DNA of 54,669 nucleotides. Origin: Chloroflexota bacterium (lineage in GTDB: Bacteria; Chloroflexota; UBA6077; JACCZL01). Positions within the stretch are counted from its first letter, which is position 1. Each line of letters begins with the position of its first letter. Shown piece after piece: positions 16,817-17,595 of this stretch. Location: the NCBI GenBank assembly GCA_020850535.1, contig JADZEM010000003.1:1-54669 (forward strand), written 5' to 3'. The notes beneath the pieces are model-generated. The model was not told where the DNA came from. It did no database searches and saw only the letters and a program-made list of their open reading frames with translations. The position numbers were made by a program, and so were the translations under genes.

Positions 16817-17203
16817 GTGTACGGTCTGGCGGCTGCTGACCACCTGGCGCACCCCCGCAATCTCGGCAAGCTGTCCGATGCCGATGGCGTCGGTCACGTC
16901 GACTGCCCCGAGACGGACACCCAGGTCACCATCTACGTGCGGCTCGGCCACACTGACGACGGTGTACCGCTCCTGCGCGCGGCGCGGTTTCGGGCGTTCG
17001 GCTGCGGCGGCTGCATCATCGCGGCCAGCATCGCGACGGACATGGCGACCGGTCAGCCGTTCGAGCAGGTTCGCGCCCTGACGGCCAGGGCGATCCTCGC
17101 CGCGCTGGACGGCGGTCTACCGGCCGAGCAGCGCTACTGCGCCGATCTGGTGGTCGAGGCCCTGCGGCTCGCACTCGAGAGCGCCGCGCCAGCGGCCACC
17201 TGA
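16817..17203 (+). CDS. NifU/IscU N-terminal-like iron-sulfur scaffold protein
   Basis: The protein is 128 residues. HPRNLGKL near residue 12 and the three expected cysteine positions match the IscU-like layout: VDCPETD (C30), FGCGGCIIAAS (near 61) and RYCADLVVEAL (near 107). The middle motif carries two cysteines, CGGC, where IscU usually has one. The conserved Asp after the first Cys is displaced (C-P-E-T-D). It probably holds or hands on an Fe-S cluster. GTG 16817 follows a GGGAG-type site. No cysteine desulfurase is next to it; a rhodanese lies beyond the repeat element on the other strand. Confidence 0.75.
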   Translation: MYGLAAADHLAHPRNLGKLSDADGVGHVDCPETDTQVTIYVRLGHTDDGVPLLRAARFRAFGCGGCIIAASIATDMATGQPFEQVRALTARAILAALDGGLPAEQRYCADLVVEALRLALESAAPAAT

Positions 17204-17270
17204 ACCTGGGGCGGTCCTACGTCGGCGATGTCAGGGGCGCGGGGCCAACGCCGCTCAGAGAGGACGCCAT

Positions 17271-17566
17271 CCGCACCGCGAGCGTCAGCGAGTCGGACCT
17301 TCGCCACTCCGGTCCACACGCTCAGGGCGATTGCATGTTCGTTGGTGTTCCCGCAACGCCATGGCGCGAGAAAGTCGGGGGTTGAAACCCCCGTCTACAG
17401 TCATTCCGTCGCTGCGCGACGGACGCCGGAAGCAGCATCGACAGGTCAAACAGGGGCGTCGCGAAGCGACTGCAGGATGGTAGGCGGGGCTTTCAAGCCC
17501 CGACCACCCTGCACGACCCGCTCAACGCGCAATCGCCCTGTCCACGCGCTGACGCTCGTGGTGCGG
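17271..17566. repeat. Nested inverted-repeat (MITE-like) intergenic element
   Basis: The outer arms CCGCACCGCGAGCGTCAGCG (17271-17290) and 17547-17566 are reverse complements at 19 of 20 bases. Next in, CAGGGCGATTGC (17323-17334) pairs exactly with 17529-17540. Inside are two inverted copies of a 48-base unit (17374-17421 and 17457-17504), each made of a GGGG.TTGAAA.CCCC hairpin, a CTAC box and a GTCGC/GCGAC hairpin. The whole element has no coding potential and fills the 392-base gap between the IscU-like and rhodanese genes. Confidence 0.7.
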
Positions 17567-17595
17567 AAGCGCGACGCCCTGATCGGCCGACCGCC

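What the first reader, a model, noticed from the sequence alone, without database searches (positions are those of the whole stretch)
17271..17566. Nested inverted-repeat element with two mirrored 48-base double-hairpin units
Outer arms (19 of 20), middle arms (12 of 12) and two inner 48-base copies (each two hairpins plus a CTAC box) form one extended palindrome-like structure of about 296 bases. It could be a miniature transposable element or a structured RNA, and it is unlike simple REP sequences.
Basis: seen in the sequence. Interest (0 to 1): 0.55.

Follow-up and report, generated by a model that had tools for sequence, protein, structure and literature searches.

The report
Jumping element carrying two mirrored hairpins
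The structure is a small non-coding jumping element that landed inside an older palindromic repeat between two genes; it belongs to a known transposon family and matters mainly because it carries a pair of bacterial hairpin repeats as passengers, as a different element in a distant relative also does.

Summary
The inner part (17323-17540, 218 bp) is a miniature inverted-repeat transposable element (MITE). Its ends (CAGGGCGATTGCAYGTT) and its 10-bp target duplication (TCCACACGCT / TCCACGCGCT, 9 of 10) are those of the ISAs1 transposon family. The genome holds 446 exact copies of the 12-bp end and 95 elements of this size with both ends. Of 46 solitary copies examined, 28 have perfect 10-bp flank duplications. 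The outer arms belong to a separate palindromic repeat (about 17249-17588), aligned with 15 other copies that lack the insertion. Inside the MITE lie two inverted 48-nt units, each a hairpin with a GTAG/CTAC tag plus a second hairpin. This is the layout of a GTAG-type REP tail-to-tail dimer, so 'unlike REP' is not right. A few such dimers also lie outside MITEs. No RAYT (the usual REP mobiliser) was found in the genome, and the two ISAs1 transposase genes found are disrupted. In a distant genus of the phylum, ISAs1-ended MITEs carry a different GTAG hairpin pair in the same layout. MITEs with a GTAG REP are already published (QMITE2 of Coxiella). It most likely spread by trans-mobilisation, without a shown host function.

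The parts
17249..17588 (.). Outer palindromic repeat (about 112 bp without the insertion; TGCCGTTCAG...CTGAACGGCA-like ends, the right one degenerate), interrupted by the MITE
   Evidence: 15 other copies aligned, none with the MITE at this point; copy search; empty-site alignment to C81 copy
17271..17290 (+).
   Evidence: 19 of 20 complementary to 17547-17566
17547..17566 (-). Outer arm, right
17313..17322 (+). Target-site duplication, left copy TCCACACGCT
   Evidence: 9 of 10 identical to 17541-17550
17323..17540 (.). ISAs1-type MITE, 218 bp (217 in most copies)
   Evidence: copies; TSDs
17323..17339 (+). Left terminal inverted repeat CAGGGCGATTGCATGTT
   Evidence: equals the left end of an ISAs1 element in a relative (L071)
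17524..17540 (-). Right terminal inverted repeat (15 of 17 to the left one)
17374..17421 (+). 48-nt unit 1: hairpin A 17376-17393, CTAC tag 17395-17398, hairpin B 17407-17421
17457..17504 (-). 48-nt unit 2, inverted: hairpin B 17457-17471, GTAG tag 17480-17483, hairpin A 17485-17502
17541..17550 (+). Target-site duplication, right copy TCCACGCGCT
16817..17203 (+). Neighbouring gene, NifU-like N-terminal domain protein (context only)
   Evidence: PF01592, 65.6 bits
17596..17934 (-). Neighbouring gene, rhodanese-domain protein, convergent (context only)
   Evidence: PF00581, 71.7 bits

Best explanation
A non-autonomous DNA transposon (MITE) of the ISAs1 family, carrying as its interior an inverted (tail-to-tail) dimer of a GTAG-type REP unit, inserted into the 3' half of an older palindromic intergenic repeat. 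SHOWN: the copies, ends, 10-bp duplications, empty sites, the ISAs1 transposase family having the same ends and duplication length, and unit conservation inside and outside MITEs. INFERRED: an ISAs1-family DDE transposase supplied in trans bound the CAGGGCGATTGCAYGTT ends and moved the element, amplifying the REP dimer as passenger. In the genome as held no intact transposase was found, so the copies may now be immobile. Between the convergent NifU-like and rhodanese genes the hairpins may stop or stabilise transcripts from either side (inferred, untested).
For: Copy number: 43 places, window included, at E below 1e-39 (only 40 of 521 first-look candidates scored); end 12-mer 237+209 exact, backward control 0; 95 elements with both ends at this size, control 0. 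Target duplications: of 63 distinct 195-225-bp elements, 17 are in tandem and 46 solitary; 28 of 46 have perfect 10-bp flanks and 35 of 46 at most 2 mismatches; non-self flank pairs with at most 2 mismatches: 2 of 1122. Tandem composites share outer duplications: 4 of 5 with 0-1 mismatches, 4 of 9 (two elements in both lists). Parent family: NCBIfam ISAs1 model 396.7 bits, cut-off 70, for the relative's transposase, 258 bits for the own-genome fragment; that relative's element has both ends CAGGGCGATTGCATG; of 50 ISAs1 loci from named genomes, 25 gave ends plus duplication, 24 of them 10 bp. Empty sites: 15 other outer-repeat copies lack the insertion. REP nature: GTAG tag, hairpin, inverted dimer; hairpin A covaries (25 both-side changes vs 6.8 shuffled); 3 dimers and 1 single unit outside MITEs in 1.64 Mb, with different spacers and flanks.
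Against: No intact ISAs1 transposase found in the own genome (2 copies, both cut short); those two copies match the MITE ends only in part (longest exact prefix 5 and 11). The relative's element lacks a matching duplication and its C-terminal tail is out of frame. 11 of 46 solitary copies have no 10-bp duplication with at most 2 mismatches (one of them, L060, has a perfect 9-bp one there, and L024 shows an identical 12-bp stretch on both sides). The REP label is weaker: 144 of 151 units lie near MITE arms and no RAYT is present, so the units may be simply MITE interior. Placement gives no sign of a terminator role: 7 convergent, 18 same-direction, 8 divergent of 33, close to the shares of intergenic length.
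Confidence: 0.85

Rival explanations
1. A REPIN-like element: the REP dimer itself is the mobile unit, moved by a RAYT (Y1 tyrosine transposase), and the ISAs1-like ends are incidental.
For: GTAG-tagged hairpins in an inverted dimer; solitary dimers exist outside MITEs; relatives have Y1 transposases (43 of 101 genomes).
Against: The duplicated flanks abut the CAGGG ends, not the hairpins; no PF01797 match in this genome; 144 of 151 units lie near MITE arms; solitary dimers show no shared flanks.
Confidence: 0.08
2. A structured non-coding RNA gene (or RNA motif like Rfam Acido-Lenti-1) that happens to be repeated.
For: Strong fold; covariation in hairpin A; whole-model match to RF01687 at 25 bits with the same hairpin-CUA-linker-hairpin layout.
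Against: Below the gathering score of 37 here and 0 of 3 genome matches over it; hundreds of copies with target duplications fit a transposon; covariation also follows from palindrome-templated repair; no expression data.
Confidence: 0.07
3. A host-selected bidirectional terminator or mRNA-stabilising repeat kept between convergent genes.
For: The window copy sits between convergent genes; 36 of 36 MITE loci of at least 90 bp are mostly outside called genes and 0 of 34 emptied sites lie inside coding frames, against 233 of 300 random points.
Against: No enrichment between convergent genes; absence from genes is expected from selection against gene disruption alone; the mobility marks suggest a selfish element.
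Confidence: 0.15

Closest known systems
QMITE2 of Coxiella burnetii (PMC5896051, passages read; review PMC10969869, passages)
   Same: MITE of similar size (150-190 bp) with a GTAG REP inside, variable 7-11-nt direct repeats, mostly intergenic or 3' UTR; truncated copies look like bare REPs
   Different: 'ISAs1' does not occur in that paper's text; it describes a GTAG REP, whereas here there is an inverted pair of double-hairpin units, ISAs1 ends and 10-bp duplications
ISAs1-family insertion sequences (NCBIfam NF033564)
   Same: CAGGGC-type ends, 10-bp duplications in 24 of the 25 resolved copies
   Different: No transposase gene in the 218-bp element; similarity stops after about 17-18 bp of the ends
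GTAG-REP tail-to-tail dimers / BIMEs / REPINs (PMC3733652, sections 5, 7, 14 and passages; PMC3116915, passages)
   Same: GTAG tag, short hairpin with compensatory stem changes, inverted dimer, structured spacer (second hairpin at each spacer end); A. variabilis GTAG-15 dimers are reported inside long palindromes
   Different: Here nearly all dimers ride in a DDE-transposon MITE with target duplications, and no RAYT was found
Rfam RF01687 Acido-Lenti-1
   Same: Hairpin, CUA, linker of similar length, second hairpin; full-length alignment
   Different: 25 bits, below its 37-bit gathering score

Membership tests
MITE (non-autonomous DNA transposon) | Short, non-coding, terminal inverted repeats | tested here: met
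   217-218 bp, TIR 12 of 12 and 15 of 17; the ORF that spans it in the list is mechanical and has no transposase
MITE (non-autonomous DNA transposon) | Target-site duplications | tested here: met
   28 of 46 solitary copies perfect, 35 of 46 at most 2 mismatches in 10 bp; window copy 9 of 10
MITE (non-autonomous DNA transposon) | Dispersed multicopy with empty sites | tested here: met
   15 outer-repeat copies without insertion
ISAs1 family | CAGGG-type ends as in elements with an ISAs1 transposase | tested here: met
   L071 ends share up to 18 nt with MITE ends; 28 of 80 MITE ends share at least 15 nt with each L071 end; 25 of 50 ISAs1 loci with such ends plus duplication
ISAs1 family | Target duplication of the family's length | tested here: met
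   10 bp in 24 of 25 resolved ISAs1 copies and in the MITE; '8-10 bp' for the family is recalled
ISAs1 family | Intact transposase with the same ends in the same genome | tested here: not met
   Two disrupted copies only; draft genome, 96% complete. Lowers 'currently mobile', not the origin
GTAG-type REP dimer | GTAG tetranucleotide at the foot of a short palindrome | tested here: met
   CTAC invariant after hairpin A in the 34-row alignment; rows had been picked with a pattern that asked for [CG]TAC
GTAG-type REP dimer | Inverted dimer with tags inside (TT) | tested here: met
   window units; 3 solitary dimers
GTAG-type REP dimer | RAYT in the genome | tested here: not met
   No PF01797 match; [quoted passage not shown]
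RF01687 Acido-Lenti-1 RNA | Gathering score 37 bits | tested here: not met
   25 bits in the window; best in genome 28.2
Structured RNA | Expressed transcript | not testable with these tools
   No expression data

The most novel reading that the evidence does not exclude
Vehicle switch: in Chloroflexota lineages, REP dimers cut off from a RAYT have hitched onto ISAs1 DDE transposons and been amplified as MITE cargo, more than once. Evidence: among 400 genomes of the phylum only four have ISAs1-ended elements of this size, falling into two MITE families alike only at their ends (own genus; genus g149 of another family, 10 elements), and both carry GTAG-tagged hairpin pairs in the tail-to-tail layout although the hairpin sequences differ. 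The dimer may help the MITE, for example as a two-way transcription barrier protecting its ends.
Probability: 0.3. Interest if true: 0.5.

Novelty: new member of a known kind. Interest (0 to 1): 0.33.

Why it matters
It turns an odd palindrome into a readable history: an old repeat, then an insertion by a named transposon family. It adds a high-copy ISAs1 MITE from Chloroflexota and a further case, after QMITE2, of REP hairpins carried inside a MITE. If the double occurrence in two lineages is not chance, it makes testable whether REP hairpins help small transposons survive or move, and warns that REP abundance need not mean RAYT activity.

Tried and rejected
RAYT in the own genome: none. MITE in 60 relatives by DNA: none beyond the own genome. 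MITE in 72,556 plasmid records: no match. Unit model R1 in 101 genomes: 17 genomes besides the own match, but only at 24-37 bits against 70-78 in the own genome, so no claim of homology is made. In the own genome only 60 of 10,511 first-look candidates were scored there. Rfam: nothing over threshold. A generic scan for GTAG next to perfect 9-bp stems was uninformative because hairpin A has a 7-bp perfect stem. Orientation of neighbouring genes: no bias. The rough hexamer gene caller is my own and was not benchmarked. The shuffle control was flawed (it allowed self-pairing), so one search replaced it. Two papers holding both 'ISAs1' and 'MITE' were checked for passages (PMC3542288, PMC5756416); those passages do not describe this.

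Literature: searches listed no paper on an ISAs1 MITE with a REP dimer that I could recognise from titles and abstracts; the library lacks most subscription journals. Papers: PMC3733652 abstract, sections 5, 7, 14 and passages; PMC5896051, PMC10969869, PMC3116915, PMC2864571, PMC3542288, PMC5756416 passages only; others seen in listings.

Full report
WHAT IS THERE. Its parts belong to two different repeats.

THE INNER ELEMENT. A search of the window's own genome (G000, 7.65 Mb, 227 contigs) with the 296-bp stretch shows that only the core 17323-17540 recurs at high copy; the outer arms appear elsewhere separately. The 12-bp end CAGGGCGATTGC occurs 237 times forward and 209 reverse, with 0 for the backward control. 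A two-ended pattern (R/Y allowed in the ends, total length 197-227) finds 95 elements, control 0. Copies are 217 bp as a rule (40 extracted). Among 63 distinct 195-225-bp elements held at that point, 17 were next to another end and 46 solitary; of these 28 have perfect 10-bp flanking repeats and 35 at most two mismatches. Among non-self flank pairs, 2 of 1122 reach that level. The window copy has TCCACACGCT and TCCACGCGCT. Tandem pairs with short spacers, often exactly 10 bp, can share an outer duplication (4 of 5; 4 of 9, two elements being in both lists), which suggests that M-10bp-M composites moved as one unit.

THE PARENT FAMILY. Two ISAs1-type transposase genes were found in the genome, both cut short. 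The best relative is in another genus of the same family (G001, L071): its transposase matches NCBIfam's ISAs1 model at 396.7 bits (cut-off 70) and its two ends are CAGGGCGATTGCATGTT and CAGGGCGATTGCATGAT. That copy has no matching duplication and its C-terminal tail is out of frame. From 80 ISAs1 loci in named genomes I took 50; 25 gave paired ends plus a duplication, which is 10 bp in 24 and 9 bp in 1. So ends and duplication length both place the MITE with ISAs1. The MITE shares only about 17-18 bp with the IS ends; beyond that no similarity to the IS was seen.

THE INTERIOR. The two 48-nt units are inverted copies. Each has hairpin A, a CTAC tag (GTAG on the other strand), about 8 nt, then hairpin B. 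In an alignment of 34 distinct units, 30 of 48 columns are invariant, and hairpin A varies by paired changes: 25 both-side cells against 6.8 in shuffles, though relatedness inflates this. The pattern used to collect units demanded part of this layout, so invariance is partly by construction; a profile search built on the same rows is. In 1,636,299 bases of the genome (13 other contigs, some incomplete, plus the window) it found 151 units, 144 near a MITE arm and 7 not: three inverted dimers (C13, C41, C43) and one single unit. The three dimers have different spacers and flanks. Di Nocera et al. (PMC3733652) describe GTAG REPs as such dimers, with structured spacers and paired stem changes, also in Chloroflexi. 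I read the units as a GTAG-type REP tail-to-tail dimer. Against this, no RAYT (PF01797) match exists in the genome, although 43 of 101 searched genomes have one.

THE OUTER REPEAT. None has the MITE at the corresponding place, and joining the window's flanks with one 10-bp copy removed restores a continuous match, apart from an expansion in the C81 copy. The window copy's right end is degenerate and some 8 bp shorter. Whether this repeat is itself a MITE was not settled.

PLACE AND FUNCTION. The structure fills the gap between a NifU-like gene and a convergent rhodanese gene. In 787 kb, 36 of 36 MITE loci of at least 90 bp lie mostly between genes called by a rough script, and 0 of 34 emptied sites lie within a coding frame, against 233 of 300 random points. 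Orientation of neighbours is not skewed. So there is no positive evidence for a host function; selection against gene disruption suffices.

ELSEWHERE. The MITE itself was not found in 60 relatives or in plasmids. Of 400 genomes of the phylum, 4 have ISAs1-ended elements of this size: the own genome and three genomes of one genus (g149) in another family, with 10 elements. Of these 10, 7 have 10-bp flanks with at most one mismatch, and 8 have a tagged hairpin on both sides, tags inside (GTAG/CTAC, with GTAC variants), around a different hairpin, GGGCACCC-loop-GGGTGCCC. BLAST links them to the own MITEs only through the ends. In 400 kb of one of these genomes, 5 of 6 such hairpins were near an ISAs1-type end. 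Two families out of two carrying REP-like pairs is suggestive, not proof of a rule.

KNOWN OR NEW. A MITE with a GTAG REP inside is already published (QMITE2, PMC5896051, passages). What is new here is the ISAs1 assignment, the dimer of double-hairpin units, the nested position and the second lineage. I file it as a new member of a known kind. Host lineage: kinship and a contig shared in length, ends and duplication with DIXP01000084.1 'Chloroflexi bacterium UBA6077' put the genome in Chloroflexota, same order as that MAG (inference).

Noticed in passing
window 17375-17421 and Rfam RF01687: Acido-Lenti-1, filed in Rfam as an sRNA, has the same layout (hairpin, CUA, linker, hairpin) as these repeat units and aligns over its full length at 25 bits; it may itself be a REP-like repeat.
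   Followed up: partly
L287-L298 (genomes G224, G259, G266): ISAs1-ended MITEs with 10-bp duplications and a different GTAG-tagged hairpin pair, in a distant genus of the phylum.
   Followed up: partly
G000 C143:79606-79713, C135:70124-70231, C123:10372-10476: About 105-108-bp forms with MITE-like ends and a single central hairpin, as if the dimer had collapsed by deletion between its palindromes.
   Followed up: partly
L096-L110 flanks: Several copies of the outer repeat seem to sit between inverted hairpin sequences such as GTCGGGGCGTGAAACCCC and GGGCATAGCACGCCCGAC, as if it had a taste for hairpins.
   Followed up: no
L131 (G086:C1:233801-234238): Seven tandem copies, period about 65 bp, of a double-hairpin weakly matching the unit model (31 bits each).
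   Followed up: no
G000 contigs C83, C189, C220, C201 ends: Units or MITE pieces lie at or near several contig ends, so the element probably breaks the assembly and is undercounted.
   Followed up: no
L031/L070 (C136) and L032/L086 (C187): Two disrupted ISAs1 transposase genes sharing a subterminal TTTTGTCAAGTA motif not seen in the MITE ends.
   Followed up: partly
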